Positions 34,909 through 54,601 of a stretch of DNA of 64,000 bases are shown one piece after another. Origin of the DNA: Bacillota bacterium (GTDB taxonomy: Bacteria > Bacillota_I > Bacilli_A > Izemoplasmatales > Hujiaoplasmataceae); contig JAHIVB010000002.1 of NCBI GenBank assembly GCA_018816905.1, forward strand, positions 62,001 through 126,000, given 5' to 3'. The notes under the pieces were generated by a model. It ran no database searches and was not told where the DNA came from. It worked only from the letters and a program-made list of their open reading frames with translations. How positions within the stretch are numbered: position 1 is the stretch's first letter; each line of letters starts with the position of its first letter. The translations under genes and the position numbers were made by a program.

Positions 34909-35892
34909 TTATTTATTTCCCATCGTCATTACCATAACCGCTTTTGAAGTATGGAGACGATTTTCAGCTTCTTGGTAAACGATGGAATGGACTCCATCAA
35001 TGACTGAGTCTACGACTTCGTTACCTCTGTCAGCTGGTAAAGCATGCATGTATTTAACATTTGGACTAGCAAGTGCAATCATTTCTTCGGTACACTTCCA
35101 TCCTTTATAACTTTCAAGTAAATCGTCGACCACGGCTGTGGATTGATTTTTCACCCAACTGCCCCAGTTTTTCGGAATAACGATATCGGCTCCTGTAAAA
35201 GCTTCTTCCATGTTATGTGTGATGTGGAATTTTCCACCGTTTTCGATGGCGTTTTTCTTTGCTTTTTCAATCGCCCAATCAGGAAGATCATAGCCTTCTG
35301 GATAAGCCAAAGTCACATCCATTCCATATCTCGGGAACAACAATATTTGAGTCAAAGGAACACTGATTGGTTTTTTATGAGTCGTCGCGTAAGCCCAAAT
35401 AATCGAGACTTTAAGATTCTTTGTCGTCTTCGATACTTCTTGAATCGTCATTAAATCCGCTAGACCTTGCATCGGATGATATAGGTCATCCTGTAGATTC
35501 ATAATTGGTACGCTTGAATTCGCTGCCATTTCGCGGAGATATTTGTTTCCAACTTCCCAGAAGCAATTTCTGCAGGCAATTCCATGTCCATAGGACGATA
35601 AAATCACTGCCGTGTCTTTGGCGGATTCTCCATGGGAGATTTGCATTTTGGATGTATCAAGAAAAACACCGTGTCCGCCAAGATGTGCAATTCCGGCTTC
35701 CATTGAGTTTCTTGTTCTCGTCGATTGCTCAAAGAACATCAAAAATGCGGTTTTGTTTGTTAAATACGGGGTTGGTACATTGTTTAAAAAATCGTGTTTC
35801 AGTTGGAAAGAGACTTCCAGAAGTTTATCGATTTCCGGTTTCGTCCATTCTTCCAATGTGATGAAGTGTTTGCCTTTGAATAGTGGTTCCAT
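34909..35892 (-). CDS. ygeW: Knotted carbamoyltransferase YgeW
   Basis: A 327-residue aspartate/ornithine carbamoyltransferase-fold protein. The carbamoyl phosphate loop appears as FFEQSTRTRNSME, followed by HLGGHGVFLD and later HALPADRGNEV, as in YgeW and related knotted carbamoyltransferases with non-ornithine substrates. In known anaerobic purine clusters YgeW is thought to handle a carbamoylated ring-opening product, releasing carbamoyl phosphate for ATP synthesis. Last gene of the 20-kb operon, 10 nt after ygeY. AAGGAG precedes the ATG. Confidence 0.9.
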   Translation of the reverse strand: MEPLFKGKHFITLEEWTKPEIDKLLEVSFQLKHDFLNNVPTPYLTNKTAFLMFFEQSTRTRNSMEAGIAHLGGHGVFLDTSKMQISHGESAKDTAVILSSYGHGIACRNCFWEVGNKYLREMAANSSVPIMNLQDDLYHPMQGLADLMTIQEVSKTTKNLKVSIIWAYATTHKKPISVPLTQILLFPRYGMDVTLAYPEGYDLPDWAIEKAKKNAIENGGKFHITHNMEEAFTGADIVIPKNWGSWVKNQSTAVVDDLLESYKGWKCTEEMIALASPNVKYMHALPADRGNEVVDSVIDGVHSIVYQEAENRLHTSKAVMVMTMGNK

Positions 35893-35902
35893 GGTTTCTC
35901 CT

Positions 35903-37114
35903 TTATTTATTTTCTATTTGCAATAGATAGTTTTGTGGGATTGCCGCATACATTGCGCATGCTCTGACAAGTTCAGATTTAAATGTTTTTTCATTCGGGG
36001 CATGTGCCTCTTCTTCGTGTCCCGGACCAAAGCCAATACAAGGAATATGATACCTTCCCATAATCGATACCGCATTGGTGGAAAACGTCCATTTGTCGAC
36101 CTTTGGCGCTTTTTTAAATAATCCTTCATAACTCCGGATTAAGGACTTGGTTACCTCATGTTCCGCTGGTAAAACCCAGGTAGGAAAATAGGCTTTTGTC
36201 GGATATACCAGCCCTGTATAAGAAGGTCTGTCGTAGTCATACATTTCAACGACAGCGCCTACTTTTTGGACGGAAGGCAGATTCTTGATTTCTTCAATTG
36301 CGGACAAATACGTTTCTCCGTCCGTCAATCGACGGTCGATTGAAATGAAACATCCATCCGATACTGCGCATCGGCTCGGGGAGGAAGAAAAGATTTCACT
36401 AACGGTAAGCGATCCCTTTCCTAAAAAATCATTATGAAGCAAATGTTTGTGAAGTTCTTGAAGTTCGAGTAAGATTGGAGCCATTTTGAAAATGGCATTG
36501 TCTCCTCGTTCCGGAGCACTTCCGTGACAGGAGATTCCGGATACTGAAACCTTGATTTCCATTCTGCCTCGGTGCCCTCTGTAGATATTACAACTGGTCG
36601 GCTCAGTAATCACGACGAATTCAGGTTTGATTTTGTCTTCTTCAATGATATATTGCCAGCAAAGACCATCACAGTCTTCTTCTTGAACAGTACCGGTCAC
36701 CAATAAAGTGTAATCCCCTTCGAGCTTCAAATCCTTGATAATTTTCCCGGCATAGACCATCGATGCCATTCCGCCTTCTTGATCGGAGCCGCCTCTTCCA
36801 AGAATGACTTCTTCGTCTTCTGCGCCTTGATAAGGATCGACTTTCCAGTTCTTGATTTCGCCGATTCCGACGGTATCGATATGAGCGTCCATTGCAATGA
36901 CATGCTTGCCATTACCGATTCGACCGATGATGTTGCCCATCGGGTCAATCGTGATGCCGTCGAATCCTACCGATTCCATCTCTTGTTTGATTCGTTGAAT
37001 GACTAATTCTTCATCGCAAGATTCTGAAGGTATCCTAATCATGTCACGAAGAAATTTTGTCATCTCTACCTTATAGCTTTCTGCTTTTTCTAATATTTTA
37101 TCAAACGGAATCAT
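35903..37114 (-). CDS. ygeY: YgeY-family M20 hydrolase (selenium/purine-linked)
   Basis: A 403-residue M20 metallohydrolase. Zinc ligands and catalytic residues are visible in [27 protein letters not shown] with the catalytic Glu, and the C-terminal [15 protein letters not shown]. This matches the YgeY group that always travels with ygeW and molybdenum hydroxylases. Probable role is hydrolysis of an amide or ureido intermediate of purine ring breakdown. AAGGAAGG precedes the ATG; the gap to the upstream PLP gene is 2 nt. Confidence 0.92.
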
Positions 37115-37116
37115 GG

Positions 37117-38484
37117 TTATTCCTTCCTTAACTTTTGAATCAGTTGATCGTAATGGTGGATCTTATCATACTCGTTATCCCAGAAATCAGGAGATTTCAT
37201 CGCATCGAGATAGTCTTGTGAATATCCAAATTTAATCCAGTCGTGTTCTTTTTGTTTGAACAGTTTTTCTTTTTGTTCTTTGGTTCTATAATCGAAAATA
37301 TCTTCAATTCCATTTCTTCTAAAGACATCGACAAACCATCTTTTCAAAACGAAATCTTCAGTTTCAAGGTATCTTCTTTCTAAGTCTTCAAGGACAGATT
37401 CATAGCGATCAAAGCCATCCGTTGCGATAGTGACGACATTGTCATCAGGTCCTAAACGAAGATATTTAGCCATTTTGATTGCGCCAATGATGTTACAGAT
37501 ACCAGAAACACCAAACAGTTCTTTCATTGAAGAAGCGACTTCTGGATCAACACCGTTTTCCACTAGTACTTTTTCACCGTCATGAATGACTTTGAGTCCT
37601 CTGACGGAATCATCGTCTTTAATTAAAGCGATGAAGTCCGTATTCAAGACATTGTGAATCAAAGTACACATCTTGTCTCCGATTCCTTCGATTCGATGTT
37701 GGCCTTTTCCGCCGGATGACAGGGTAGAACATTCATATGGTTCTAGGGCAACGACTTTGGCTTCAGGAAATACGGACTTGATATGATCTCCTGCCGCAAG
37801 CGTTCCGGCTGATCCCGGTGCACTACAGTAGCAAGCGATTCTTGAGTTTCCTACGCCTTTCACCGCTTCCACAGCGGAGCCACCGGTCACATGGCGATGG
37901 AATCTATAGTTTGGCATTAATTCAAATTGAGCTAATGAACGATTCTTGGGATCCTTTTTTAGTTCGAAAGTTCTTTCGAGCGTCAAGATAACGTCAGATT
38001 CCGTACCAGGAGTCAAATCTAATTTTGCGCCATATCTACGGATTCTGTCATAACGTTCTTTACTCATGTTATCAGGCATGATGACGATGGAATCGTATTT
38101 CATTAAATTACAGATGTAAGAAACCCCAATCCCGAAGTTACCGGTGGAAGGGCCTAAAATGGTATGAACTCCAGGGAGAATCTCGCCATCAACACATCCT
38201 TCGATGAGGGTAGAATATGCCGGTCCCACTTTATGGGATCCGGAAGGAAAGTATTTTCCGAGCAAAACGACGATATTCGCTTCGACTCCGGTCAATTCTT
38301 TAGGGAGAACGATTTTATGTACTTGGTTCGATTCGTCTTTCCAATTGATATTGAAAAGATTGAGCGGATTCAATTCGTCTTGTTTCGCATCAAGAGCTTT
38401 TTTTCTTGTCGACGAATCGATCCTTGAGGGGTAAAGCATTTCTTCATAAGTAGGGCCAAATGGTATTTTAGTCAAGTTATTCAC
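37117..38484 (-). CDS. Fold-type II PLP enzyme, TrpB/cysteine synthase-like
   Basis: A 455-residue PLP enzyme. The Schiff-base Lys is in [12 protein letters not shown] (about residue 85), the phosphate loop is [10 protein letters not shown], and [13 protein letters not shown] and [11 protein letters not shown] complete the fold II core. The C-terminal ~60 residues are an unusual charged extension. In E. coli-type clusters the comparable place holds YgeX (diaminopropionate ammonia-lyase), to which this protein is not an obvious match. It may cleave an amino-acid-like intermediate. The start is a GTG at 38484 overlapping the threonine synthase-like gene by 8 nt, or a TTG 9 nt inside. Confidence 0.85.
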
Positions 38485-39733
38485 CTATCATTTCTTTCAT
38501 GTATTTTTTTAAATCTTCAAGCGTTGCTTTCACGTATCTTGTATCTTTAAATGCTGATAAAGCGGTTGTTGTATCCTTCAGTCCGTTTCCGGTGATAATC
38601 ACGCAGGTCACGTCTTGCTTTGTAATGACGCCATTGTCAAAGGCCTTGAAATACCCGGCAAGCGATGCCGCTGCGGCAGGTTCAGCAAATAGACCTTCTT
38701 TGCTTCCAAGAATCTTCATTGCTGATAGAATATCTTCGTCTTTCACAGACAAGAAACACCCAAGCGTATTGGTAACGGCATCCATCGCTTTTACAGGGTT
38801 TCTTGGAATTCCGACGGAAATGGAATCGGCAATCGTATTTTCTTCCTGCTCATGAATGGGTTCATGGTATTCAAACGACTTCACAAAAGGGTTGCATCCA
38901 ACTGATTGAACTCCGAGCAAACGAGGAATCTTTTTGATGAGGCCAAGCATAAACAAATCATAAAACCCCTTGTAAACACCGGCAATCGTACAACCGTCAC
39001 CGACACTACTCACAACCCAATCAGGAACTTCAAAATCCAGTTGTTCGGCAATTTCAAGTGCAACGGTTTTTTTGCCCTCTACCATCAAAGGATTGATGGC
39101 TGCATTCCGATTGTACCATCCGAACTCTTCGATTGCAAGTTTGGATAAAAGGAAGGTGTCTTTATAGTTACCGTCCACGACAATCAGATTTGCTCCATAA
39201 GCTTTGAGTTGAGCGAGTTTCCCCGCAGGTGCCCTTTTTGGTACGAAGATGACCGTATTTAATCCTAACCTCGCTGCATTTCCTGCTAGTGAAGAAGCAG
39301 CGTTTCCGGTCGATGAACAGGCAATGGTCGTAAACCCTTCTTCCATTGCTTTGCATACCGCTAATACAGAAGCTCGATCTTTTAAAGAAGAGGTCGGGTT
39401 CGCTCCGTCATCTTTGAAATAGAGAGGACCAGCTCCTCGTTCTTCTTCGATTTTGTTAGAACGATAGAGGGGAGTCCATCCGACTTTCAATGTTTTATCG
39501 ATGTACTTTCCTTCAATCGGAAGAAAAGGAAGATATCTAAATATATCTCGTCTTTGGTTATGAATGAAATATTCTTTGTTGACTTCTTTTTTCATTTCTT
39601 CATAATCGAATTCAATATCTAGAATTCCTAATTCTCCACAGTCTGGACAAGTAAGGTGTTTGGATTCTTTTGGAAACGTTTTATGACAAACTGTGCAACA
39701 GTACTGTTTTACATATTTCACTTTATTCACCAT
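38477..39733 (-). CDS. Threonine synthase-like PLP enzyme with N-terminal zinc ribbon
   Basis: A 418-residue PLP enzyme. Two CxxC pairs (CCTVCHK, CPDCGE) form a rubredoxin-like ribbon at the N-terminus. The PLP Lys is in NPTSSLKDRAS (about residue 108), followed by CSSTGNAASSLAG, SVGDGCTIAG and the end motif ITGNGLKD, all typical of ThrC. No other threonine biosynthesis gene is near, and it overlaps genes of the purine operon on both sides (11 and 8 nt). That argues for a catabolic lyase role with the next PLP enzyme rather than threonine synthesis. Confidence 0.85.
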   Translation of the reverse strand: MVNKVKYVKQYCCTVCHKTFPKESKHLTCPDCGELGILDIEFDYEEMKKEVNKEYFIHNQRRDIFRYLPFLPIEGKYIDKTLKVGWTPLYRSNKIEEERGAGPLYFKDDGANPTSSLKDRASVLAVCKAMEEGFTTIACSSTGNAASSLAGNAARLGLNTVIFVPKRAPAGKLAQLKAYGANLIVVDGNYKDTFLLSKLAIEEFGWYNRNAAINPLMVEGKKTVALEIAEQLDFEVPDWVVSSVGDGCTIAGVYKGFYDLFMLGLIKKIPRLLGVQSVGCNPFVKSFEYHEPIHEQEENTIADSISVGIPRNPVKAMDAVTNTLGCFLSVKDEDILSAMKILGSKEGLFAEPAAAASLAGYFKAFDNGVITKQDVTCVIITGNGLKDTTTALSAFKDTRYVKATLEDLKKYMKEMIGE

Positions 39734-41438
39734 CTTCCATCGGAATCAGTTTAAATGTTTCGACGTCAAACAATCCTTTATCCGTCAGCTTGAGTGAAGG
39801 AATAACGGGAAGAGAAAGAAACGCAAGATTAAGGAACGGATCTGCAATGTCATCTTTCACACCCATTTCTCTGATTTTATTTTCCATGCTGGATAGAATC
39901 GAATCAACGTGTTCTGCACGGTTTGAAGTCATCACACCTCCAACTTCCAATTGAAGCGAATTCACGATTTTATGATTCTTCACAAGACAGATTCCACCTT
40001 GCAAGCGAATCAATTCATCAATGGCGATGAGCATATCCGTGTCTGAGTCGCCTATGCAGATGAGATTATGTGAATCATGAGCAATCGTCAAAGCGATTGC
40101 GCCACCTTTCAAACCATATCCTTCGATGAGTCCTATCGCTTTGTTTTCCGTAGAGAAGTGTCGTTCAATCACAGCGATTTTCAATAAGTCTTTGTCCGCT
40201 TCTTGAACATACAGTCCATTTTTAACCAACACCTGTCTAATCAAGTTTTTGGTTGTGACATTGTTGTGTTCAAAACCAATGACATGAACAAGATCCTTTT
40301 TGAGAGGAAGGTCAAGATTTAAATGTTCTCTGTTGATATGAACGGTATTTAACACTTCGAGGGCAATCAACTCTTCTTCTTCAAACAAAGGATGTCCATC
40401 ACGTGCAACCATGATTCCTTTTTTGAAGACTTGCCTCGGTTCGATTTTATTTAAGTGATCAAAAACAATCAAATCCGCATAGTATCCCGGTGCGATTGCG
40501 CCTATCCTCTTGATTCCATACGCAGAAGACGCATTGATGGTAGCCATTTGAATGGCGATAAGCGGGTCCACTCCGCAAGAAATAGAAAGGTTCACATTAT
40601 GATTAATATGCCCGTCTTTCAAGATGTCGGAAGGGTGAAGGTCATCTGTACAGAAGAGCAATCTTCTCGAAAATGATTCTTCGATATAAGGCGCAAGCGC
40701 CGCAACGTTTCTCGTTGCTGATCCTTCTCTCAATAGGACATATAATCCTTTTTTGACTTTTTCAATCATTTCTTCTTTGGTGGAAGACTCGTGATCGGTT
40801 TCGATTCCTGACAAGAGATAACTATTCAATTCGTCTCCGGTCACAAATGGAGCGTGTCCATCTTTGACGAATTTTTCAAACAAATGTAGTTTATCATATA
40901 CAGATTGTTCTCCGTTGATGACCCCTGGATAGTCCATCATTTCACCGAGTCCGAATACCGAACCGTTTTTGAGATAAGGTATCATGTCTGAAGAATTGAT
41001 TCTTGCTCCACTGGTTTCATACGCAGTAGCGGGAACACACGAAGGCATCATCATATAGACGTCTAGCGGAGATCTTTTACTGGATTCAATCATGAAATCG
41101 AGTCCTTTGAGTCCACAAATATTGGTTATTTCATGAGGGTCGGCAATGACTGAAGTGGTTCCTTTTGGAAGAACCAACCTGGCAAACTGATGAGGGACTA
41201 GCATCGAGGATTCAATATGAACATGACTGTCAATGAATCCTGGTGCTACATAGGATCCGGAAAGGTCGATTTCTTCTACTCCTTGATAATGTCCAATTCC
41301 CAGAATCATGCCATCGTGAATGGCAATGTCGCCTTTCTCGATGGTGTTATCAAACACATTGATTACTTGGGCATTTTTTAGAACCAAAGACGCCTTCTTT
41401 TTTTTCAGAGTCATTTCCGATATGTTCAAATGGTTCAT
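39723..41438 (-). CDS. ade: Adenine deaminase
   Basis: A 571-residue amidohydrolase. PGFIDSHVHIESSM gives the first metal His pair, TTSVIADPHEITN the next block, CTDDLHPSD the catalytic Asp, and the C-terminal domain has the family's THDSHNL-like AHDSHNLICIGD. Full length for AdeC, which turns adenine into hypoxanthine plus ammonia. AAGGAGG precedes the ATG. It supplies the molybdenum hydroxylases encoded directly upstream. Confidence 0.95.
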   Translation of the reverse strand: MNHLNISEMTLKKKKASLVLKNAQVINVFDNTIEKGDIAIHDGMILGIGHYQGVEEIDLSGSYVAPGFIDSHVHIESSMLVPHQFARLVLPKGTTSVIADPHEITNICGLKGLDFMIESSKRSPLDVYMMMPSCVPATAYETSGARINSSDMIPYLKNGSVFGLGEMMDYPGVINGEQSVYDKLHLFEKFVKDGHAPFVTGDELNSYLLSGIETDHESSTKEEMIEKVKKGLYVLLREGSATRNVAALAPYIEESFSRRLLFCTDDLHPSDILKDGHINHNVNLSISCGVDPLIAIQMATINASSAYGIKRIGAIAPGYYADLIVFDHLNKIEPRQVFKKGIMVARDGHPLFEEEELIALEVLNTVHINREHLNLDLPLKKDLVHVIGFEHNNVTTKNLIRQVLVKNGLYVQEADKDLLKIAVIERHFSTENKAIGLIEGYGLKGGAIALTIAHDSHNLICIGDSDTDMLIAIDELIRLQGGICLVKNHKIVNSLQLEVGGVMTSNRAEHVDSILSSMENKIREMGVKDDIADPFLNLAFLSLPVIPSLKLTDKGLFDVETFKLIPMEDGE

Positions 41439-41459: not shown

Positions 41460-42302
41460 TTAGTCGAGAGTATCCATAAAAGCAGAAATAAGATTTTTAG
41501 TGACTTGTGTCCGATATTCGATGTTCGAACGTTGATCATTGATGGGCTTGATGGATGAAAGGTAAAGTGAAATGATTTGATTTTTCATCTTCTGTGCTTG
41601 CTCAATCGTTTTCCCAATCAATTTGGCTTCAATGTCAAATCTTCTGACGACAGTTACATTGACGGCACCGATTGAGATTCGAAAATCACAGATTTTATCG
41701 TGTACGATGGAGTATGCTCCTGCAAATGAGACTTTGGATAATGCATCCGCTTTCCTCGTACCTACTTTTCGATACATTGTACTTTTGAATCTGTTTTTTG
41801 GAATAATGATTTCGGTGATCATTTCAGAATCCGTCAAAGCGGTTTTCTTCAAACCAACAAAAAAGTCCTGGATTGGAATCAATCTTGAAGCTTTCACACT
41901 TTGGCATTTGATTAAAGCATTGAGTGTATATAACGGAACTAGCGAGTCTCCTGCAGGAGACGCATTTCCTAAATTTCCCGCAAGTGTCGCGATATTTCTG
42001 ATTGCGGGAGATGCCATTTGTTCAATCGCTTCTTTCAATAGTTTAGGTACGCTCTCATAGGTTAACAATTCAGATAGTGTCGTCATTGCGCCTATATATA
42101 GATAGTCATCGCCTTCTTTGACATATTTGAGTTCCTTCAGGTTCGCACAATAAAGAACCGGATTTTTAAAAGGAATCGGTGCTTCGCTAACAGTTCGGTT
42201 CTGAACAATCAGGTCGGTTCCGCCAGCGTAAATGATATACTTTCGTTCTGATAATCTTGATAATGCTTCCTCAACCGATTTGACGATGATTTGCTCTACC
42301 AT
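41460..42302 (-). CDS. xdhB: Xanthine dehydrogenase-type FAD subunit, set 1 (XdhB)
   Basis: A 280-residue FAD-binding subunit of a molybdenum hydroxylase: YIIYAGGTDL is the first FAD loop and IATLAGNLGNASPAGD the second, followed by RKADALSKVSFAGAY in the C-terminal domain. It passes electrons from the Fe-S subunit to NAD or another acceptor. It overlaps the 2Fe-2S subunit gene by 7 nt and is followed by ade. Completes trimer 1 with the genes at 42296 and 42762. Confidence 0.93.
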   Translation of the reverse strand: MVEQIIVKSVEEALSRLSERKYIIYAGGTDLIVQNRTVSEAPIPFKNPVLYCANLKELKYVKEGDDYLYIGAMTTLSELLTYESVPKLLKEAIEQMASPAIRNIATLAGNLGNASPAGDSLVPLYTLNALIKCQSVKASRLIPIQDFFVGLKKTALTDSEMITEIIIPKNRFKSTMYRKVGTRKADALSKVSFAGAYSIVHDKICDFRISIGAVNVTVVRRFDIEAKLIGKTIEQAQKMKNQIISLYLSSIKPINDQRSNIEYRTQVTKNLISAFMDTLD

Positions 42303-42769
42303 AATCCGTCACCGTCCTCAGATGCCTTTTTGACGGCTTCGATGATGGACTGGTACCCCGTACAACGACACAGGTTTCCTGACATTCCTATTTTAATGTC
42401 TTCTTCGGTCGGCGTCGGATTGTCATAAAGTAAAGATTCGGTCGCAATAACCATTCCCGGAGTACAAAAACCGCACTGTACAGCACCGGCATGGCCAAAA
42501 CTATCTCGAATGACCTGATATCTGGAAGTTTCTTTTAATCCTTCGATGGTCGTAATTTCATGACCATCGACATTGGCCAAAACAACGGAACAAGAATTCA
42601 CAATTTTGTGGTCAAGCAGTACGGCGCACGCACCGCACTCCCCTTCACCGCAACCTTCTTTGATTCCAGTTAGTTTAAATTCATTTCGAAGGACGTCGAG
42701 GAGACGTACTCCTGGATTTCCTTCAACGCTGACTGTTTTTCCATTTAAGATGAATGTTATTTTACTCAT
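42296..42769 (-). CDS. xdhC: Xanthine dehydrogenase-type 2Fe-2S subunit, set 1 (XdhC)
   Basis: A 157-residue protein with two [2Fe-2S] sites: the plant-ferredoxin type (GCGEGECGACAV plus NSC) and the alpha-helical type (QCGFCTPGM, then LCRCTGYQ). Carries electrons from the molybdenum centre to the FAD subunit. Its ATG overlaps the end of the molybdenum subunit gene (8 nt), and GGAG sits upstream within that gene. Confidence 0.95.
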   Translation of the reverse strand: MSKITFILNGKTVSVEGNPGVRLLDVLRNEFKLTGIKEGCGEGECGACAVLLDHKIVNSCSVVLANVDGHEITTIEGLKETSRYQVIRDSFGHAGAVQCGFCTPGMVIATESLLYDNPTPTEEDIKIGMSGNLCRCTGYQSIIEAVKKASEDGDGLW

Positions 42770-44849
42770 GTTTCATCAACTCCATTATCTTTTCAGGTGT
42801 CACTGGGATTGAAAACACTTTTTTGCCAATGGCCATTTCTATGGCTTTGGCAACCGCTGGGGCACCTCCAACCAAAGTCAATTCTCCGACACCTTTTGCG
42901 CCATATGGCCCAAGAGGGTAAGGATTGTCCATGATGACAGTCGTCATTTTAGGCGCATCCATTGAAGTTGGAATGATATAGTCTGTAAAATTCTTTTGCA
43001 GTAATTTACCATTGGAGTGATTCATGACTTCCAAATAACCATAGGCAACGCCTTGAACGATTCCGCCATCGGCTTGGCCGATGACGATTCTCTCGTCAAT
43101 CGCTTTTCCTAAATCATAAACACTCCATATTTCGTTGACACTGACTTCATAAGTCGTTTTGTCGACACTGACTTCCACGACATTGACTCCCCAAGAATAA
43201 GCAGGGTAGGCGTCTCCGGTCATGGTGGCTTCATCCCATTTGATATAACTGGGTTGAAGGTATCTTTCTTCTAGCAACATTTCTCCTGGAATCCAGGAAT
43301 CTTTCATTTTCTTTGCGCATCTAGCAACGAGACCACCGACGATCATCATGGTTCTTGAAGCGACAGTCGGTCCTGAATCCGGTACTTTATCCGTATCAGG
43401 TAAGTCATATATAACCTTTTCAATTGGAATTTCAAGTAAGGAAGCCACCAGTTTACGCATCGTGGTTCTGACACCTTGTCCCATGTCTACTGCCGCAATC
43501 AGGATTTCAACATTCTCTTCTTTCGTCTTGTGAAGTTTCACTAAGGCATTGATGTGAGTCGACTCTCCGCTTCCGGTAAATCCGCATCCATGAAGAAACC
43601 AGCTCATGCCGATACCTTTCGAGACGTTAGGTCTTGAAAAGATTTTTGCTTTTTCTTTGAATTTTGATATTTCAAGTGCTTTTTTTATCATTTCAGGCAT
43701 AATGATCGGATCTCTGAATAAGCCATTTGTAGAAGTAGGGTCGCCTTGTTTTGCAAGGTATTTTAACCTGTATTCCAGAGGGTCGATTCCTAGGTCTTTT
43801 GCGATGTGTTCGATGAACAAATCAATCGCAAACAACATTTGAGGTGCACCAAATCCTCTAAAAGCTCCATTTGGAACGGTATTTGTCAAAAATACATCTC
43901 CAGAACTATCGATGTTTTCAATTGTATACGCTCCGGTGGTTGCGATCATGGCCCGAGATAGGACGACTCCGCTTAAACCAATGTTCGCTCCTCCGTCAAT
44001 ACCGATGTTTGATTTGATCGCGAGAATTTCACCGTTTTCGCCGATGGCTGCGGACATTTTAGATTTCGAAGGATGACGTTTGGTTGTCGAAATCATGTCT
44101 TCTTCCCGTTCGTAAATCATTTTAATCGGTTTTTTGATTTTTTTGAGAGCGACAGCAAGTTGACAAGCCATCAAAGACGGAAACTCTTCTTTTCCACCAA
44201 ATGCTCCACCAACGGTCGCTTGAATAACCCGGACCTCGTCTCCCTTAGAATCAAGAGCCTGCAATAACGCATTCTTGACGTAGTAAGGGCATTGGATACT
44301 ACCAATCAGCGTCACTTTTCCTTCTTCATAAGTCCCTATGAAACCTTGTGGTTCAATATAGGCTTGTTCCTGATAAGAAGTGTCATAAACATATTCGATA
44401 ATCTTGGTTGCTTTTTGAAATGCTTCTTCAGGTTTTCCTTTTTGAAAGTGATAATGAACTGCACTACTCACCCAGTCAAATATCGGAGTCATGAGTTCAT
44501 AATCCACGATGGTGTTATGAATGATTTCTTCTAACAGTTCTTTGTTTTTTCCGACAACCAAAAGAATCGGTTGTCCGATGTAAGTTACGACCTCTGTCGG
44601 AAAAATTTCCTGGTCGTCAAAAATGATTTTAACGACGTTTTTTCCTGGAATGTCTTTATAATCAACGATATGAACATCTTCAGGGAGGTTTGGAAATCTG
44701 ATTCCCTTGATTTTTGCTTTGGCAACGGTGGATCTTAAAGTCCGAGCATATAGCATATCGTCATACGAAAAATCACTGACGTATTTTGCTTCTCCACTCG
44801 TTTTTTCATAAAGATCGACCTTTTCGATGGATTTGGATATATCCGCCAT
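42762..44849 (-). CDS. xdhA: Molybdenum hydroxylase large subunit, set 1 (XdhA)
   Basis: A 695-residue molybdopterin subunit, somewhat shorter than the usual ~750. GGAFGGKEE holds the Moco Gln-loop equivalent, GAFRGFGAPQ the substrate-facing Arg, AVDMGQGVRT the cofactor loop, and GPYGAKGVGE the catalytic Glu near the C-terminus. It should hydroxylate a purine such as hypoxanthine or xanthine; exact substrate is not readable. AAAGGAG precedes the ATG at 44849, and the extension to 44921 would overlap the PreA-like gene. Trimer 1 with XdhC and XdhB. Confidence 0.95.
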   Translation of the reverse strand: MADISKSIEKVDLYEKTSGEAKYVSDFSYDDMLYARTLRSTVAKAKIKGIRFPNLPEDVHIVDYKDIPGKNVVKIIFDDQEIFPTEVVTYIGQPILLVVGKNKELLEEIIHNTIVDYELMTPIFDWVSSAVHYHFQKGKPEEAFQKATKIIEYVYDTSYQEQAYIEPQGFIGTYEEGKVTLIGSIQCPYYVKNALLQALDSKGDEVRVIQATVGGAFGGKEEFPSLMACQLAVALKKIKKPIKMIYEREEDMISTTKRHPSKSKMSAAIGENGEILAIKSNIGIDGGANIGLSGVVLSRAMIATTGAYTIENIDSSGDVFLTNTVPNGAFRGFGAPQMLFAIDLFIEHIAKDLGIDPLEYRLKYLAKQGDPTSTNGLFRDPIIMPEMIKKALEISKFKEKAKIFSRPNVSKGIGMSWFLHGCGFTGSGESTHINALVKLHKTKEENVEILIAAVDMGQGVRTTMRKLVASLLEIPIEKVIYDLPDTDKVPDSGPTVASRTMMIVGGLVARCAKKMKDSWIPGEMLLEERYLQPSYIKWDEATMTGDAYPAYSWGVNVVEVSVDKTTYEVSVNEIWSVYDLGKAIDERIVIGQADGGIVQGVAYGYLEVMNHSNGKLLQKNFTDYIIPTSMDAPKMTTVIMDNPYPLGPYGAKGVGELTLVGGAPAVAKAIEMAIGKKVFSIPVTPEKIMELMKHE

Positions 44850-44863
44850 ATCTTCAACTCCTT

Positions 44864-45937
44864 TTAAACTGTAATTGCCTTCACCGGACATTTGGAGACA
44901 CATAGTCCGCATCGGAAACACAAAGTCTCGTCAAATGTGATCTTGTCCTTGAAATCAATAGCGAAATAAGGACAGATGTTTTTACATAGCATGCACTTCG
45001 TACATTTCTCTTCTATTAGTTTTGGTACTTTTCCGATGTATTCCACTGGATTGGAAAGAGTTGTTGCTTTCACTTCTTCGATGCTTGAAAAACCATATTT
45101 GGCCAAAGCTCCAGGAAGGTCGGCAATAATTCTTTTGTACAGATCCTTCCCTTTTAAAAGCGCAGCGGAAAGCATTTGTACTGCTTCAGCTCCCGCAAGC
45201 AAAAACTCGATGACGTCATCAGCGTTTTTGATTCCGCCAACACCAATGATTGGCATATCGGGGAGTGCTTGTTTGATTTTATAGATTGTCGCTAGGGCAA
45301 CAGGCTTAATCGAAGGTCCGCTTGTCCAAACAAATCCTTCACTGTTTCCATAGACGATTTGTCTTTTTTCGATATCAATTTTCATCGTCGGTCCGAGACT
45401 GTTTACAGCTACTAGTCCGGTTGCGCCAGCTTTTAATACTGCTTTCGCAAATTCCACAGGAGATGGAATGTGAGGACTGATTTTCATGAAAAGTGGTTTT
45501 GCGGTATGTTTCCTGATTTCTAAAACAATGTCTTTGATGACTTGAATGTCTTTGCCAACATAATGAGTGGATACTTCAAACATATCCGCAAATGGTTCGA
45601 GCAACGGAATCAACACCGCCATGTCTTCTTTGGAATAACCGACGCTGATGATCAGAGGTCGATCTTTGTTTTTATGATATTCAGGTAAAAATTCGTTCAT
45701 CCATCTTTCTTTGGAGTGCTCACTCCAGAGTTCTGAATTCATCACATATTCTTTGTCTCCATAGATACAAGGCTTCGGAATATGAGGCTCTTTGGTGGAA
45801 ATTGTCTTGGTCACAACTGCTCCACAACCACTTACTCTCATAAATTCAAGTTTATCAAAATCTCCTACAAGCGGTCCGCTTGCAGGCATTAATGGGTTGT
45901 CCAGGGTAAACCCTGCCAGTTTTGTTTTTAGACTCAT
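44864..45937 (-). CDS. PreA-like dihydroorotate/dihydropyrimidine dehydrogenase with 2x[4Fe-4S]
   Basis: A 357-residue flavoprotein. Residues 1-295 are a DHOD-like FMN barrel (NPLMPASGPLV, KISPHIPSP, GVGGIKNADD). The C-terminus adds two ferredoxin clusters (CTKCMLCKNICPY and CFRCGLCVSKCPV). This is the architecture of PreA, the FMN half of dihydropyrimidine dehydrogenase, and resembles part of YgfK of known uric acid clusters. It probably reduces a ring double bond before HyuA opens the ring. No PreT-like partner is found here, so the electron donor is unclear. AAGGAGG precedes the ATG. Confidence 0.9.
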   Translation of the reverse strand: MSLKTKLAGFTLDNPLMPASGPLVGDFDKLEFMRVSGCGAVVTKTISTKEPHIPKPCIYGDKEYVMNSELWSEHSKERWMNEFLPEYHKNKDRPLIISVGYSKEDMAVLIPLLEPFADMFEVSTHYVGKDIQVIKDIVLEIRKHTAKPLFMKISPHIPSPVEFAKAVLKAGATGLVAVNSLGPTMKIDIEKRQIVYGNSEGFVWTSGPSIKPVALATIYKIKQALPDMPIIGVGGIKNADDVIEFLLAGAEAVQMLSAALLKGKDLYKRIIADLPGALAKYGFSSIEEVKATTLSNPVEYIGKVPKLIEEKCTKCMLCKNICPYFAIDFKDKITFDETLCFRCGLCVSKCPVKAITV

Positions 45938-47232: not shown

Positions 47233-48531
47233 CTAAAAGTCTCCCTTCAGTAGTTTTCCACGACTGATAATATATTCTCCACCCTGAAGAACTTGTTTTC
47301 CTCTAAGAAATACATCCGTGATAAATAGGTCTTTTTTCATTCCCTTATAAGGTGTGTAATCGCATTTTGAATGGATATAATCGATGAATCCCGGTTGAAG
47401 TCGATAAATGACAAGATCAGCATCTGACCCTTCGCAAATCAACCCTTTCCTTGACAAATGATGTAACTTTGAAACGTTTTTCGTCATTTTATCAATCGCT
47501 TTTTCCTTGAAAAGATGATACATCAAAGCATAGCTCGTCTCTACTCCACCAATTCCAAGTGGGATGTCTTTTAAAAGAAGATGGTTCTTCTCTTCCATTT
47601 TAAAAGGACAATGGTCGGTACCAATGGTGTAGACATGATCAAACAAGCTCACAAGTAGATTTTGTTCTTCTTTCGATCTAATCGGTGGTGCAAGTGTATA
47701 AAGATAACCGTCTTTTTGACGGAACAAATCATTATTCAATGTAAAATATTGAGGACAGCTTTCAACGAAAAATCGTTGATTTAAAATGTCTGAATATTCG
47801 CTATGAAGTCTTCTTAAGGTAATTCCGCTCGAAAGATGAACCATATAGAGGTGTCCTCCATAGGTTCGGACGTATTCAGCGAGTTTCAAGGCTTCGTTGG
47901 TTTCTGAAAAAGTTGGCCTTGAAACAGACAACTCTCTATAAGTATATTTCGGATTCAAGTCAATTTGTTCATCATTTTCAATGTGAGCCAAGAGTAGAAA
48001 TCCATATTTTTCAGACAATTTGAGGAGTTTGATGATGTCTGAATCATAGGTTCTTCTTCCGGAATTAGAATAGGTCGTGAACAGTTTGAGTGAATGGATA
48101 CCCAGTTCCATCATTTTTTGAACGTATTCTTCCAAATCACCGTCCGGATTTTTGATTGTCGCATGGAAAAGATAGTCACACTTTGAATATTTGGCTTGTT
48201 CAACACGTTTTGTGAAGGCTTTTTCCAAATCGATTGCATTCGAGGTGGGATCCAAGAAATCAATAATCGTCGTAACACCGCCATAAAGCGCAGACAAAGA
48301 CCCCGATCTAAAATCGTCCGCAGAGGTTGTAAACCCCAAATCCAAATCAAAATGAGTATGGGGATCAATCAATCCGGGTATGACGTATTTCAACGTAGCG
48401 TCAATGGTGACGTCCGCTGGCAATTCGTCAGTCGTGATTTTTGCGATTCTTTCATCGGTGATATAAAGGTTCGTTTTTTTAAACTGTGAGTCGATATACA
48501 CAAACGCATGCAATATTCGTTTGTCAAACAT
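47233..48531 (-). CDS. hyuA: Dihydropyrimidinase-family cyclic amidohydrolase (HyuA)
   Basis: A 432-residue cyclic amidohydrolase. PGLIDPHTHFDL gives the HxH metal pair, SLKLFTTYS the bridging Lys that becomes carbamylated, LLAHIEND and MVHLSSG the metal His residues, and GTDHCPF the catalytic Asp. Opens a cyclic ureide such as a dihydropyrimidine or hydantoin ring. GAGATGATAGG precedes the ATG. Follows the P-loop NTPase gene by 11 nt. Confidence 0.92.
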   Translation of the reverse strand: MFDKRILHAFVYIDSQFKKTNLYITDERIAKITTDELPADVTIDATLKYVIPGLIDPHTHFDLDLGFTTSADDFRSGSLSALYGGVTTIIDFLDPTSNAIDLEKAFTKRVEQAKYSKCDYLFHATIKNPDGDLEEYVQKMMELGIHSLKLFTTYSNSGRRTYDSDIIKLLKLSEKYGFLLLAHIENDEQIDLNPKYTYRELSVSRPTFSETNEALKLAEYVRTYGGHLYMVHLSSGITLRRLHSEYSDILNQRFFVESCPQYFTLNNDLFRQKDGYLYTLAPPIRSKEEQNLLVSLFDHVYTIGTDHCPFKMEEKNHLLLKDIPLGIGGVETSYALMYHLFKEKAIDKMTKNVSKLHHLSRKGLICEGSDADLVIYRLQPGFIDYIHSKCDYTPYKGMKKDLFITDVFLRGKQVLQGGEYIISRGKLLKGDF

Positions 48532-48542: not shown

Positions 48543-49016
48543 CTATAATTCAGTTACGATTTCCATTTCTTCAATATTGAATTTTCTAATGACTTCTTCG
48601 AGCAAATCTTCTCTAGTCGATAGTACCAAATCGAGTTTTGAAGCCACAAGCTTTTTAAGAATCTGATAAAATCCTTGTTCTTTCAATTCCAATACTCCGA
48701 TTTCATCCAAATAAATCGGTTCTACTTGATGATGTATCATTTTCTCAATTTCATTCTCAATGAACTTCAGTCCCTTTTCTAAAAAGCAGTAAGGGCCTAT
48801 CTTGCAAGCAACGACTTCATCTTTCAAATCTAGTTCATGTATGGCCAGTAAGGTTTCCTGATTCGATGAAAGATGGAGTGCATCATAACGATGAACTCTT
48901 CCATTCTTCATGGTTTTCAAACTGATAACCCCGTCACCTATCGGCTGATTTAAGTATTTTGCGAGCAGGAAGGTCGTTTTACCGGAGTTAATCTTCCCAG
49001 TAACGAAACTTACCAT
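48543..49016 (-). CDS. P-loop NTPase (THEP1/DUF2478-like) in molybdenum hydroxylase cluster
   Basis: A 157-residue P-loop protein. Walker A is VTGKINSGKTT at the N-terminus and Walker B is PIYLDEIGVLEL near residue 98, as in THEP1-type NTPases. It overlaps the xdhC-type maturation gene by 29 nt, so the two are co-translated, and it may give energy or specificity to cofactor insertion. That role is inference; related small NTPases are found in some molybdopterin gene neighbourhoods. GAGGGAG precedes the ATG. Confidence 0.85.
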   Translation of the reverse strand: MVSFVTGKINSGKTTFLLAKYLNQPIGDGVISLKTMKNGRVHRYDALHLSSNQETLLAIHELDLKDEVVACKIGPYCFLEKGLKFIENEIEKMIHHQVEPIYLDEIGVLELKEQGFYQILKKLVASKLDLVLSTREDLLEEVIRKFNIEEMEIVTEL

Positions 49017-49830
49017 GGTTTTTCTCCCTCATGTGCGAATGATCTTGTTTCCCGTAATAGATTGAAAGAATCTCTGAAGAAATCGATATAGCGATTTCTT
49101 CCACCGTTCCTCCCCCGGTATCGAGACCGATAGGAGCATAAAAGTTCTTCAGATTAACATCTTTTCCGAAAGTTTCATAGGTTTTCTCTAGATAATCATC
49201 CAGTTTGGATGGAGAACAAAGCATCCCGATATATTTTGGTTTCGCTTTAATGAAAAGAATTTTATTGATGACATGATAATCATAAAGATGTGATGGCGTG
49301 CATACGACAATGTAAGAAGACTCTAAAATACCATATTTGTCGATGTAATCAAGGAAAGGCATGTGATGAACCTGGTCTGCATTTTTGACAACATCACAAA
49401 TGGCTTTTCTTTCGTCGATGACTTCAACGTGAAAGTCCATTGTCTTGAGTACATTGATGAGAGCTTGTCCTACATGTCCCCCGCCAAAAATGTAAATATC
49501 CGCTTTCGCTCCTAAATATTCATAGAACAATGTGACAATACCACCGCAAACCATCGGTAGAGTTAAAACACCTGGAATGATTTTGTCTTCATTTAAGCCA
49601 TATTTCTCTAATAGTGGTTTTCTGTCTTTAAACAACTGTTTTACTTTGTTGATCGCATAATGTTCTAAAGACCCTCCACCAACCGTGCCAAAAGACTCAC
49701 CATTTTCGGTGACAATCATTTTCTTTCCAACTTCGACGGGTCCCATTCCTTCTTTTTCGACAGCAGTGACTAAGTAGATTGGAACGCCTCTTTTTTTATA
49801 ATCTAAAATCTTCTCGTAAATCAGATCCAT
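48988..49830 (-). CDS. XdhC/CoxI-family molybdenum hydroxylase maturation factor
   Basis: A 280-residue protein with an N-terminal CoxI domain (VTAVEKEGMGPVEVGKKM, then GTVGGGSLEH) and a C-terminal Rossmann domain (YIFGGGHVGQAL, VIDERKA). In characterised systems XdhC binds sulfurated Moco and inserts it into xanthine dehydrogenase. PIGLDTGGGTVEEIA is the conserved C-terminal block. Serves one or both hydroxylases of this operon; in selenium-dependent enzymes related factors load selenium. TAGGAG precedes the ATG. The symbol xdhC is not used here because it also names the Fe-S subunit. Confidence 0.92.
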   Translation of the reverse strand: MDLIYEKILDYKKRGVPIYLVTAVEKEGMGPVEVGKKMIVTENGESFGTVGGGSLEHYAINKVKQLFKDRKPLLEKYGLNEDKIIPGVLTLPMVCGGIVTLFYEYLGAKADIYIFGGGHVGQALINVLKTMDFHVEVIDERKAICDVVKNADQVHHMPFLDYIDKYGILESSYIVVCTPSHLYDYHVINKILFIKAKPKYIGMLCSPSKLDDYLEKTYETFGKDVNLKNFYAPIGLDTGGGTVEEIAISISSEILSIYYGKQDHSHMREKNHGKFRYWED

Positions 49831-49842
49831 TGAATAGGACTC

Positions 49843-50478
49843 CTATATGAAATTAACTGCTATTGTTGTTGCTACAGCGAGAACAAAAGTAGATATTGCC
49901 GCATATCTGTTTGTCGCAAAGAATACTTTTGTTTTTTGAATCCATAAGGTATGTGCGAAATAGATTAGTGTCGCAATGGCCCCGCTGAGTAACCCGCTTA
50001 CAATCGCAAAATCAACGATGGATGAAGTGCTTGCGATTAGAGGAGAAGCCACCGCCATTGCGCCTGTGGTGTATTGAATCGCAAGTGCACCTAGGAATAT
50101 GGCTCTCCAAGTAATGCTAACCAAAGGAAGTGCGATTATTTTAGGCAATACTTTGTTCGATGAAAGAACACCTAGAACTGCGACGACCAGCAATGCCTCA
50201 ACCAAGATTGAAATCATTGGATTGATTACTTTCCAAACAGAAAGATTTGGCATCAATAAATTTACACTTTTGATAAGAGACGCAGTGACCGCTACTCCAA
50301 ATACACTTTTCTTTGAATTCGTCACTTGATAGGTTCTAAGCATCACAAGTGTCGCGATGGGGAATAGGATTGAACCTGAAATCAGTGCAGGTAAAAAGTG
50401 AAGCACATATCCTAGAGTAGCTTCAAGAAGCCCCCAGATAGCACCTAAAAATAATATGGTAGTCAAATGTTTTTTCAT
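49843..50478 (-). CDS. Six-span membrane protein in the purine operon, possible transporter component
   Basis: A 211-residue, strongly hydrophobic protein with five to six spans and the N-terminal pattern FLGAIWGLLEATLGYVLH. Size and topology resemble ECF S-components, which bind a vitamin or metal ligand in the membrane, but no family signature is certain. The operon has no xanthine/uracil permease, so this is a candidate for uptake of purine or molybdate-related ligand. AAAGGAG precedes the ATG; it overlaps the hydroxylase gene upstream by 4 nt. Confidence 0.7.
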   Translation of the reverse strand: MKKHLTTILFLGAIWGLLEATLGYVLHFLPALISGSILFPIATLVMLRTYQVTNSKKSVFGVAVTASLIKSVNLLMPNLSVWKVINPMISILVEALLVVAVLGVLSSNKVLPKIIALPLVSITWRAIFLGALAIQYTTGAMAVASPLIASTSSIVDFAIVSGLLSGAIATLIYFAHTLWIQKTKVFFATNRYAAISTFVLAVATTIAVNFI

Positions 50479-52793: not shown

Positions 52794-53242
52794 GATTGAT
52801 CCCCCAAGTAGTTCTTAATCGCCTTTTTTTGTGAGATGTATCCTGTACATCTGCATAAATTGGACACAAGATATTGGTCAACTTGTTCGTCAGTAGGATG
52901 GATGAGCTCTTTTTTAAGTGCATAAACCGTCAGTGCTAGAGAAGGGTTACAAAAACCGCATTGCTCTGCACCTTCGTCTCCAAAATAGGCAGAAATCTTT
53001 TCCGCTTCATCACTGATGCCTTCAACGGTTGTGACTGATTTTCCATCTGCTCGAACAGACAAATAAGAACAGGATGGCACTGGTTTTCCTTCAATCAATA
53101 CTGTACAAACGCCACAGCTGGTATTGTCACAACCCCTTCGAACACTTAATATATTTATTTTTCTCAAGGTGTCAAGTAAATATTCTCCTGGTTCAACTTC
53201 GACAAATCGCAATTGACCGTTGATTATCAAACTGATTTTCAT
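52790..53242 (-). CDS. 2Fe-2S subunit, molybdenum hydroxylase set 2
   Basis: A 150-residue protein with the plant-type site (GCDNTSCGVCTV, PSC) and the helical site (QCGFCNPSL, LCRCTGY). The CNPS form, in place of CTPG in set 1, is common in the XdhD/selenium-linked group. GGAGG precedes the ATG. Electron carrier between set 2 molybdenum and FAD subunits. Confidence 0.93.
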   Translation of the reverse strand: MKISLIINGQLRFVEVEPGEYLLDTLRKINILSVRRGCDNTSCGVCTVLIEGKPVPSCSYLSVRADGKSVTTVEGISDEAEKISAYFGDEGAEQCGFCNPSLALTVYALKKELIHPTDEQVDQYLVSNLCRCTGYISQKKAIKNYLGDQS

Positions 53243-54036: not shown

Positions 54037-54040
54037 ATCC

Positions 54041-54601
54041 TCATTCCTTTCCTTCAATTAAATCTTCATAATCTGCAATGGTATCAATGTCTTTCAGAAT
54101 TCCCGGATCATTAACTTGTATATATTCAGGCGTATATCGATCTCGAAAAACTTTCAAATTTGAATTAGGTTCTTCTTCTAACAAAGGTTGTTTCAATTCT
54201 TTTCGAAACAAGATCGGATGTCCTTTTCTTCCTTCGAAAACAGGGACGACGATTGGGCCTTTTGCTTCAAGCATTTTTTGTATGGTTTCTGTTTTGATCA
54301 GAGGATAGTCCCCCGGAGTAACAAAAAAATCTTCGGAAGTTTCCTGAACGCCTCTTTGAACTGATGAAAACATCCCATTCGGATAGTCGAAATTCTGAAC
54401 AATTTGGACGGTTCCATATTTTCTCAAAATACTCTTCAATTCTTCATGATAATGTCCGGAAACAACAATGATATTTTCAGTTACAGGAAGGAACGCTTCA
54501 ATCACATGATGAATTAAGGGAATCCCTTGATAAATGAGACTCATTTTGTTGATACCGGTACGTTTTGAATATCCTCCAGCAAGGATGACGGCTTGTGTCA
54601 T
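54041..54601 (-). CDS. mocA: MocA-like molybdenum cofactor cytidylyltransferase
   Basis: A 186-residue NTP-transferase. AVILAGGYSKRTGINK is the nucleotide loop, DFFVTPGDYPLI the metal-binding strand, and GHPILF the later conserved block, as in MocA, which makes the molybdopterin-cytosine dinucleotide used by hydroxylases of this family. First gene of the purine operon, preceded by AAGGAGG and the regulatory leader. Its presence explains how both hydroxylase trimers receive their cofactor. Confidence 0.9.
   Translation of the reverse strand: MTQAVILAGGYSKRTGINKMSLIYQGIPLIHHVIEAFLPVTENIIVVSGHYHEELKSILRKYGTVQIVQNFDYPNGMFSSVQRGVQETSEDFFVTPGDYPLIKTETIQKMLEAKGPIVVPVFEGRKGHPILFRKELKQPLLEEEPNSNLKVFRDRYTPEYIQVNDPGILKDIDTIADYEDLIEGKE

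What the first reader, a model, noticed from the sequence alone, without database searches (positions are those of the whole stretch)
37117..39733. Two fold-type II PLP enzymes stand where YgeX is expected
Between ade and ygeY lie a TrpB/cysteine-synthase-like enzyme (Lys in SGSHKVG) and a ThrC-like enzyme with a zinc ribbon. Known clusters have diaminopropionate ammonia-lyase YgeX here. The pair overlaps its neighbours and no threonine pathway is near, so it probably does the deamination or cleavage step in a different way, perhaps as a complex.
Basis: inference. Interest (0 to 1): 0.5.

Follow-up and report, generated by a model that had tools for sequence, protein, structure and literature searches.

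The report
Serine-forming exit from urate breakdown?
In a family of wall-less, DNA-eating anaerobic bacteria, the last step of oxygen-free urate breakdown seems to be done not by the known enzyme but by a pair of other vitamin-B6 enzymes, one of which carries a hallmark residue of an enzyme that makes serine, so the pathway may end differently from the published route.

Summary
Window 37117-39733 encodes two fold-type II PLP enzymes between adenine deaminase and YgeY, inside a reductive-urate operon; neither is YgeX. 'PLPB' (37117-38484) is a long cysteine-synthase relative, not TrpB. 'ThrCl' (38477-39733) is a zinc-ribbon sister of threonine synthase without three of its phosphate-site residues (roles recalled; residues seen). 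The same genome has a real thrC-thrB-hom operon elsewhere. In 392 genomes of the phylum PLPB is in 28, all with an SsnA match (mostly below the curated cut-off); 1 of the 28 has a YgeX-like match. In another sample of 299 genomes PLPB and YgeX coexist in 13, so 'replaces YgeX' is not the whole story. New: 132 of 132 PLPB proteins examined carry the Asp that is Asp232 of Fn1055, which forms L-serine from L-cysteine, and serine genes (glyA, sda) lie within the fetched loci of 15 of 131 PLPB. Best reading: PLPB turns 2,3-diaminopropionate into L-serine; ThrCl (or Sda) deaminates to pyruvate. Activity is untested.

The parts
37117..38484 (-). PLPB: 455-aa cysteine-synthase-like fold-type II PLP enzyme, predicted serine-forming beta-replacement enzyme
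   Evidence: PF00291 75.9 bits; best family hit cysK 124.8 bits vs cut-off 350.95; AF2 pLDDT 83.1, nearest folds beta-cyanoalanine synthase/CysK/CBS/O-ureidoserine synthase
37675..37677 (-). codon of Asp270 in [10 protein letters not shown], equivalent to Asp232 of Fn1055 (CysK chains have Ala here)
   Evidence: alignment; D232N mutant sequence differs exactly there; Asp present in 132 of 132 PLPB proteins examined
38230..38232 (-). codon of Lys85, presumed PLP lysine (SGSHKVG)
   Evidence: invariant in 35 of 35 rows of A1; (S/A)HKVG in 130 of 132 PLPB proteins, 2 unmatched by the scan; aligns with the Lys of CysK PGGSVKDR
38477..39733 (-). ThrCl: 418-aa threonine-synthase-like PLP enzyme with zinc ribbon, predicted serine/diaminopropionate ammonia-lyase
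   Evidence: TIGR00260 193.8 bits vs cut-off 167.1, NF006050 277.9 vs 303; AF2 pLDDT 90.3, best folds ThrC
39638..39697 (-). zinc ribbon CxxC...CxxC (C13-C32) of ThrCl
   Evidence: four Cys invariant in A2; a pattern scan finds it in 99 of 106 ThrCl ORFs, some of the rest cut at contig ends
39074..39106 (-). NAAINPLMVEG of ThrCl, at the place of NS(V/L)NPYRIEG of real ThrC (phosphate site lost)
39380..39382 (-). codon of Lys118, presumed PLP lysine of ThrCl (SSLKDRAS)
   Evidence: invariant in A2
35903..37114 (-). YgeY hydrolase
   Evidence: TIGR03526 682.8 bits vs 321.5
34909..35892 (-). ornithine-carbamoyltransferase-like enzyme in the YgeW position
   Evidence: TIGR00658 250.1 (cut-off 280.85), YgeW 170.6 (cut-off 500)
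39723..41438 (-). adenine deaminase ade
   Evidence: TIGR01178 604.1 vs 472.5
41460..44921 (-). xanthine-dehydrogenase-like FAD, Fe-S and Mo subunits (set 1)
   Evidence: FAD and Mo ORFs scanned (below equivalog cut-offs); the Fe-S ORF 42296-42769 was not scanned and is named from its sequence and position
44864..45937 (-). UacX/PydA-like flavoprotein with ferredoxin tail
   Evidence: DHOD family 181.6 bits, PreA 125.1 bits, both below cut-off; UacX is described in PMC12507026
45934..47232 (-). SsnA-like aminohydrolase
   Evidence: NF005540 344.7 (cut-off 444), TIGR03314 307.7 (455.5): below cut-off, assigned with the help of synteny
47233..48531 (-). HyuA-like hydantoinase
   Evidence: TIGR02033 236.7 (cut-off 393.25): below cut-off, assigned with the help of synteny
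48988..54601 (-). XdhC-like factor, second xdh subunit set and MocA-like protein

Best explanation
The pair does the closing step of the reductive urate pathway in two stages instead of YgeX's one. PLPB forms a PLP-aminoacrylate from 2,3-diaminopropionate, releasing NH3, and Asp270 activates a water that adds to it, giving L-serine. ThrCl, a threonine-synthase relative that has lost the phosphate site, removes ammonia from L-serine (or directly from diaminopropionate) to give pyruvate. The net result equals YgeX: diaminopropionate + H2O to pyruvate + 2 NH3, but free serine can be drawn off to glycine and methylene-THF (GlyA) or deaminated by Fe-S serine dehydratase (Sda). Shown: gene order, conservation, family placement, the Asp, the lost phosphate-site residues, the glyA/sda neighbours in some loci. 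Inferred: substrate, product, order and division of labour.
For: Pathway: the operon has xdh, UacX-like, SsnA-like, HyuA-like, OTC and YgeY genes, the content of the pathway of PMC12507026. Of 392 phylum genomes, 28 have PLPB (1e-40) and all 28 have a TIGR03314 match (1e-60; 5 over the curated cut-off); a TIGR03528 match (1e-100) is in 1 of the 28. [quoted passage not shown] The PDB entry of its D232N mutant is titled as an alpha-aminoacrylate complex. Serine link: glyA in 11 and sda in 8 of 131 PLPB loci, together 15, from all three PLPB subfamilies and in several gene orders; 0 of 17 YgeX-only loci; 0.82 glyA expected by chance. ThrCl is not biosynthetic ThrC: T88/S155/R160 positions read A, A or G, L or M, while real ThrC sequences from PLPB genomes keep the ThrC motifs (9 of 10 for SFKDRGM and ASTGNT, 8 of 10 for NSxNPxRIEG); the own genome has thrC-thrB-hom; 23 of 28 PLPB genomes of the own phylum have no homoserine dehydrogenase at 1e-10. 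[quoted passage not shown]
Against: No activity is shown. PLPB and ThrCl coexist with YgeX in some clusters (L030, L033, L041, L267, L268, L269), where a second route would be redundant. The loop with Asp270 is below pLDDT 50 in the model (264-273), so its geometry was not tested. The serine-gene contrast with YgeX-only loci is not significant (Fisher p 0.22), and only 7 of those 17 control loci have SsnA in reach. The Poisson figures ignore kinship: the 15 loci fall in 11 of 95 clusters at 90% but only 4 of 38 at 80% identity. The serine genes are in a minority of loci and absent beside the window's own operon. glyA and sda could serve glycine from the classical purine route (PMC3519856 passages). 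If the diaminopropionate is the D-isomer (R configuration was proposed, PMC12990295), both enzymes lack the Asp of YgeX TDGNH. Of 20 PLPB genomes searched, 3 have no YgeY at 1e-100.
Confidence: 0.42

Rival explanations
1. ThrCl alone is the non-orthologous replacement of YgeX (diaminopropionate to pyruvate), and PLPB makes serine or another beta-substituted alanine only as a side branch for biosynthesis.
For: Of 41 PLPB genomes searched, 36 have ThrCl (>=45% identity); the five without it include G213, G396 and G397, which have YgeX or a YgeX-like protein. In G213 the YgeX-like gene (499.3 bits, cut-off 532.25) directly follows PLPB', before YgeY.
Against: Six loci carry ThrCl, PLPB and YgeX together, so ThrCl and YgeX are not strictly alternatives; G400 and G408 have neither ThrCl (>=45% identity) nor YgeX, though both are draft genomes. 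PLPB is more tightly conserved (mean column identity 76%, 35 rows) than ThrCl (65%, 38 rows; partly other loci), odd for a side branch.
Confidence: 0.25
2. PLPB uses a sulfur nucleophile: it makes cysteine or S-sulfocysteine from the diaminopropionate-derived aminoacrylate, so purine breakdown feeds sulfur assimilation; or it runs a cysteine hydroxyl-lyase reaction like Fn1055.
For: CysK kinship; the purine cluster of strain zrk13 rose with 100 mM thiosulfate (PMC8397711 passages).
Against: The Asp at the Ala position of CysK marks the serine-forming enzyme; none of the operon genes scanned is a sulfur gene; the same cluster also rose in situ in the deep sea.
Confidence: 0.1
3. PLPB and ThrCl form an obligate complex that does a single YgeX-like reaction.
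For: Overlapping genes in the window; both present in 104 of 131 PLPB loci.
Against: G213, G396 and G397 have PLPB and no ThrCl at 1e-20; in some loci the two genes are apart (L060, L070). The two have different nearest relatives. No complex prediction was possible.
Confidence: 0.08
4. One of the two is a D/L racemase for diaminopropionate or albizziin, the other an L-specific lyase.
For: R-configured intermediates have been proposed (PMC12990295); fold-type II racemases exist (serine and aspartate racemases among the ThrCl structure hits); both lack the YgeX Asp.
Against: PLPB's 50 listed structural matches are beta-replacement-type enzymes, no racemase among them (one list); PLPB also sits beside YgeX, reported active on both isomers in E. 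coli (PMC12507026).
Confidence: 0.07
5. They are ordinary threonine and cysteine biosynthesis genes that ended up in the operon.
For: ThrCl passes the TIGR00260 cut-off, which would lead annotation to call it threonine synthase.
Against: Real thrC-thrB-hom operon and a separate CysK-like gene in the same genome; ThrCl in genomes with no homoserine dehydrogenase match; phosphate-site residues lost; arrangement conserved in Izemoplasmatales, Erysipelotrichaceae and Clostridia.
Confidence: 0.03

Closest known systems
Reductive urate degradation cluster of E. coli and C. difficile (PMC12507026)
   Same: xdh, SsnA-, HyuA- and YgeY-type genes and a UacX-type flavoprotein; presumed diaminopropionate intermediate
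   Different: YgeX replaced or supplemented by PLPB + ThrCl; YgeW replaced by an OTC-like enzyme; SsnA and HyuA diverged (below cut-off)
YgeX, diaminopropionate ammonia-lyase (TIGR03528)
   Same: fold-type II PLP enzyme at the same place in the pathway
   Different: both window proteins are far below cut-off, in other clades, and lack the TDGNH Asp
Fn1055 of Fusobacterium nucleatum, serine-forming cysteine lyase (PDB 5b53)
   Same: CysK-like fold and HRIEGI(S/G)D motif with the same Asp; passages in PMC9600241 and PMC5348791 say it makes H2S and L-serine
   Different: PLPB is about 115 aa longer than the 340-residue PDB chain, has GSHK instead of GSIK at the lysine, and lies in a purine operon; substrate unknown
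Threonine synthase ThrC (TIGR00260)
   Same: ThrCl is its sister clade and keeps its fold and PLP lysine motif
   Different: phosphate-site residues lost, zinc ribbon, catabolic operon, coexists with real ThrC

Membership tests
YgeX / diaminopropionate ammonia-lyase | score over the curated cut-off of NF006058 or TIGR03528 | tested here: not met
   NF006058: PLPB 27.5, ThrCl 55.9 bits, cut-off 276; no TIGR03528 match in own genome at 1e-100
YgeX / diaminopropionate ammonia-lyase | Asp in T/SDGNH (Asp120, role recalled) | tested here: not met
   27 of 27 YgeX have it; ThrCl reads STGNA, PLPB STGNF/Y
YgeX / diaminopropionate ammonia-lyase | places inside the YgeX clade | tested here: not met
   YgeX clade (SH-aLRT 100) excludes both
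Threonine synthase ThrC | TIGR00260 cut-off | tested here: met
   ThrCl 193.8 vs 167.1
Threonine synthase ThrC | O-phosphohomoserine phosphate ligands (T88, S155, R160 in T. thermophilus, roles recalled) | tested here: not met
   A, A/G, L/M in the ThrCl proteins where the motif could be read; kept in 8 to 9 of 10 real ThrC-type sequences from PLPB genomes
Threonine synthase ThrC | threonine formation from O-phosphohomoserine | not testable with these tools
   no assay
Cysteine synthase CysK | TIGR01139 cut-off | tested here: not met
   PLPB 124.8 vs 350.95
Serine-forming cysteine lyase (Fn1055-like) | Asp232 equivalent | tested here: met
   132 of 132 PLPB examined
Serine-forming cysteine lyase (Fn1055-like) | closest relationship to Fn1055 itself | not tested
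   Fn1055 was not in the tree; its phmmer E-value is similar to that of CysK chains
Serine-forming cysteine lyase (Fn1055-like) | serine formation | not testable with these tools
   no assay
OrtB (2-amino-4-oxopentanoate thiolase) | match to NF040741 | tested here: not met
   not among the 10 families of PLPB at 1e-5, nor among the best 25 of 42 of ThrCl; the own genome's OrtB scores 798.8 bits
Reductive urate cluster | SsnA, YgeY, HyuA and xdh genes in one operon | tested here: met
   YgeY over cut-off; SsnA, HyuA and xdh below their cut-offs but syntenic
Reductive urate cluster | YgeW (TIGR03316) | tested here: not met
   170.6 vs 500; C. difficile also lacks YgeW (PMC12507026)

The most novel reading that the evidence does not exclude
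A widespread second ending of anaerobic urate degradation in which the C3 unit leaves as L-serine, not directly as pyruvate, through a new diaminopropionate hydroxyl-lyase (PLPB) with a water-activating Asp, followed by a threonine-synthase-derived serine ammonia-lyase (ThrCl); it may link purine breakdown to one-carbon metabolism through GlyA in acetogens and syntrophs.
Probability: 0.35. Interest if true: 0.7.

Novelty: new variant of a known kind. Interest (0 to 1): 0.52.

Why it matters
The reductive urate pathway was worked out only in 2025 and matters for gut urate, gout and for organisms that live on extracellular DNA. The published census used Pfam PF00291 as the marker for YgeX (figure legend in PMC12507026), a family that also covers PLPB and ThrCl, so these would have been counted as YgeX. 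If the pair has other chemistry, a large share of anaerobes end the pathway in another way. A defined pair of proteins, one substrate and one mutant (D270N) make it directly testable.

Tried and rejected
Simple YgeX replacement: weakened by coexistence. TrpB kinship: rejected (the TrpB branch is long and weakly placed). OrtB kinship: no match seen. ThrC as a housekeeping gene: rejected. ThrCl/Sda complementarity as proof of a shared serine step: the five genomes without ThrCl (>=45% identity; G213, G396, G397, G400, G408) all have a PF03313 match and the five without a PF03313 match (G117, G222, G279, G399, G407) all have ThrCl, but with these frequencies that would happen often by chance. PF03313 also catches proteins of about 425-455 aa that I take from memory to be cysteine desulfidase relatives; the own genome has only such a one (no NCBIfam match at 1e-10). 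The structure list shows no diaminopropionate ammonia-lyase among its 50 rows, which says nothing about membership. The AF2 model of PLPB is uncertain around residues 260-273, so no active-site geometry was argued. No literature for the Asp232 mechanism of Fn1055 or for the ThrC phosphate ligands was found in the library; both roles are recalled, and only the PDB titles, the mutant sequence and the motif positions come from calls. Paper searches for the pair in urate clusters (word search inside PMC12507026) found nothing; Wasmund 2021 (PMC8289736) and Zheng 2021 (PMC8397711) mention such loci; no passage shown there gives this reading (passages only).
Full report
What is there. On the - strand from 54.6 kb to 34.9 kb runs a compact operon: MocA-like protein, two sets of xanthine-dehydrogenase-type subunits, XdhC-like factor, HyuA-like, SsnA-like and UacX/PydA-like proteins, adenine deaminase, then ThrCl (38477-39733), PLPB (37117-38484), YgeY and an ornithine-carbamoyltransferase-like protein. 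YgeY and adenine deaminase pass their curated cut-offs; SsnA, HyuA, xdh and OTC hits are below theirs, so the pathway name rests on the set and its order. This is the gene content of the reductive urate pathway described for E. coli and C. difficile (PMC12507026, parts 1-3 of 7 read). In that pathway urate goes through yanthine, ureidomethyl-hydantoin, 2,3-diureidopropionate and albizziin to 2,3-diaminopropionate, and YgeX cleaves that to pyruvate and ammonia. Here no YgeX was found: no TIGR03528 match at 1e-100 and no NF006058 match over cut-off in the window's genome, which is 85.8% complete.

The two proteins. PLPB is a 455-aa PALP protein. Its best family is cysK (124.8 bits, cut-off 350.95), and its nearest solved structures are cysteine synthases, beta-cyanoalanine synthase, cystathionine beta-synthase and O-ureidoserine synthase. 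ThrCl is a 418-aa protein whose sisters are threonine synthases. In a tree of 58 chosen rows (quick method, SH-aLRT support) ThrCl is a clade (98) beside ThrC (100), PLPB is a clade (99) joined to CysK/CysM (96), and YgeX is a separate clade (100). Several long branches (TrpB, DsdA, OrtB) make deeper joins unsafe.

Conservation. A scan of genome contigs found 499 stretches encoding a relative of PLPB, of which the best 80 were kept; 60 of the 80 hold ThrCl, PLPB, YgeY and OTC together, many others being cut by contig ends. In 392 genomes of the own phylum PLPB is in 28 at 1e-40. TIGR03314 (SsnA) matches 32 at 1e-60, 5 of them over the curated cut-off: these 28, and four with lower scores (204-219 bits) and in-frame TGA. 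TIGR03528 (YgeX) matches 2 at 1e-100: G173, without SsnA or PLPB, and the PLPB genome G213, there below the cut-off (499.3 against 532.25 bits). So in this sample PLPB goes with the urate pathway and YgeX does not. In a sample of 299 genomes from the phylum of the Vallitaleaceae genome G404, PLPB in the broad sense (three tiers of about 60-78, 44-48 and 34-40% identity) is in 70, YgeX in 42 (33 over cut-off) and both in 13; independence would give 9.8. There the two are neither exclusive nor linked. Six loci hold ThrCl, PLPB and YgeX together. This goes against 'the pair simply replaces YgeX'.

Not biosynthetic genes. The window's genome has an operon with a 485-aa threonine synthase (228.5 bits, cut-off 167.1), homoserine kinase and homoserine dehydrogenase on another contig. 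It also has a CysK-like gene and an OrtB in an ornithine-fermentation cluster. Of 28 PLPB genomes of the own phylum, 23 have no homoserine dehydrogenase at 1e-10. Eleven weaker, separate matches to ThrCl were listed in clostridial PLPB genomes; I fetched ten. Nine show SFKDRGM and ASTGNT, eight show NS(V/L)NPxRIEG, and one (L333) shows SFKDRGA only. In 106 ThrCl proteins these places read SxKDR(A/P)S in 104, (S/A)STGNAA in 104, and N(A/C)(A/G)(I/V)NPx(L/M)xEG in 99; of the other 7, five read SCAINPYLVDG or NCAINAYLIEG and two are cut before the place. Position counting on 1uim puts the lost residues at T88, S155 and R160; that these bind the substrate phosphate is recalled, not read.

The aspartate. 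The alignment of PLPB with PDB 5b53 (Fn1055) shows [10 protein letters not shown] against HRIEGISDEF. The sequence of 5b55, the D232N mutant, differs from 5b53 exactly at that Asp in the stretch compared, and 5b55 is titled as a complex with the alpha-aminoacrylate intermediate. [quoted passage not shown] The CysK chains printed have Ala there. All 132 PLPB proteins examined (131 loci and the window, not every PLPB found; 2 of them identical in the core, L042 and L043) carry the Asp: 122 by the first scan, and the other 10, which failed the scan because they read HDIQGIGD, by printed sequence. The role of Asp232 in adding water to the aminoacrylate is recalled from the structural paper, which was not found in the library.

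Serine genes. In 131 PLPB loci (up to about 10 kb on each side, many cut by contig ends) glyA is found in 11 and sda in 8, together 15; in 17 YgeX-only loci, 7 of which have SsnA in reach, in none. One glyA per 2400 genes would give 0.82. The 15 loci fall into 11 of 95 clusters at 90% identity and 4 of 38 at 80%, and cover all three PLPB tiers and several gene orders, for example glyA-ThrCl-PLPB-YgeY-OTC, ThrCl-glyA-PLPB-sdaB-sdaA and PLPB-sdaB-sdaA. The contrast with YgeX-only loci is not significant (p 0.22). An alternative is the glycine-serine-pyruvate route of classical purine fermenters (PMC3519856 passages); it fits less well where the cluster is the reductive one, as in L042, L044, L071 and L074.

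Expression. [quoted passage not shown] The content matches this operon; I did not align that locus. The authors read the PLP genes as amino-acid metabolism.

Model. PLPB: diaminopropionate + H2O to L-serine + NH3. ThrCl: serine (or diaminopropionate) to pyruvate + NH3. This would explain the beta-replacement kinship, the Asp, the serine genes, the frequent company of ThrCl (104 of 131 loci), and why a genome without Sda still needs ThrCl. It does not explain why some clusters keep YgeX too. Substrate stereochemistry is open: the YgeX proteins keep the Asp (26 TDGNH, 1 SDGNH, of 27) and PLPB and ThrCl lack it.

Verdict. It is a new variant of a recently described pathway with a specific, cheap test. 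Nothing here is proof of activity.

Noticed in passing
window 34909-35892: The carbamoyltransferase is a conserved OTC-like subgroup (66-93% identity to the window protein in the loci) well below the YgeW cut-off; its acceptor (2- or 3-ureido group) is unknown.
   Followed up: partly
L127 (own genome C2:5500-12500): Ornithine-fermentation cluster with OrtB, 2,4-diaminopentanoate dehydrogenase, carbamate kinase and an OTC-like gene; I saw no carbamate kinase among the purine operon genes scanned, so this one may serve it.
   Followed up: partly
L296:6228-10472: PLPB' stands directly before a glycyl radical enzyme gene (indoleacetate-decarboxylase-like, 870.3 bits, cut-off 1100), with no urate genes recognised in the 20 kb.
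   Followed up: no
L063:930-12137: In Syntrophaceticus schinkii the pair lies near an SSS symporter, a nickel-pincer isomerase (group 22) and LdhH; the genome has no YgeY at 1e-100, so the pair may work on another substrate there.
   Followed up: partly
window 32684-33259: Divergent small deaminase gene; a clustered family of what looks like this kind occurs in 35 of 91 PLPB loci; likely guanine deaminase (inferred from the zrk13 paper), NCBIfam gives only TadA below cut-off.
   Followed up: partly
window 49843-50478: 211-aa protein between XdhC and the second Mo subunit with no NCBIfam match at 1e-5.
   Followed up: no
G488, G554, G631: These genomes carry two PLPB types (about 67-68 and 44-45% identity); the 45% copy in L293 and L295 sits next to YgeY and OTC without ThrCl in reach.
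   Followed up: no
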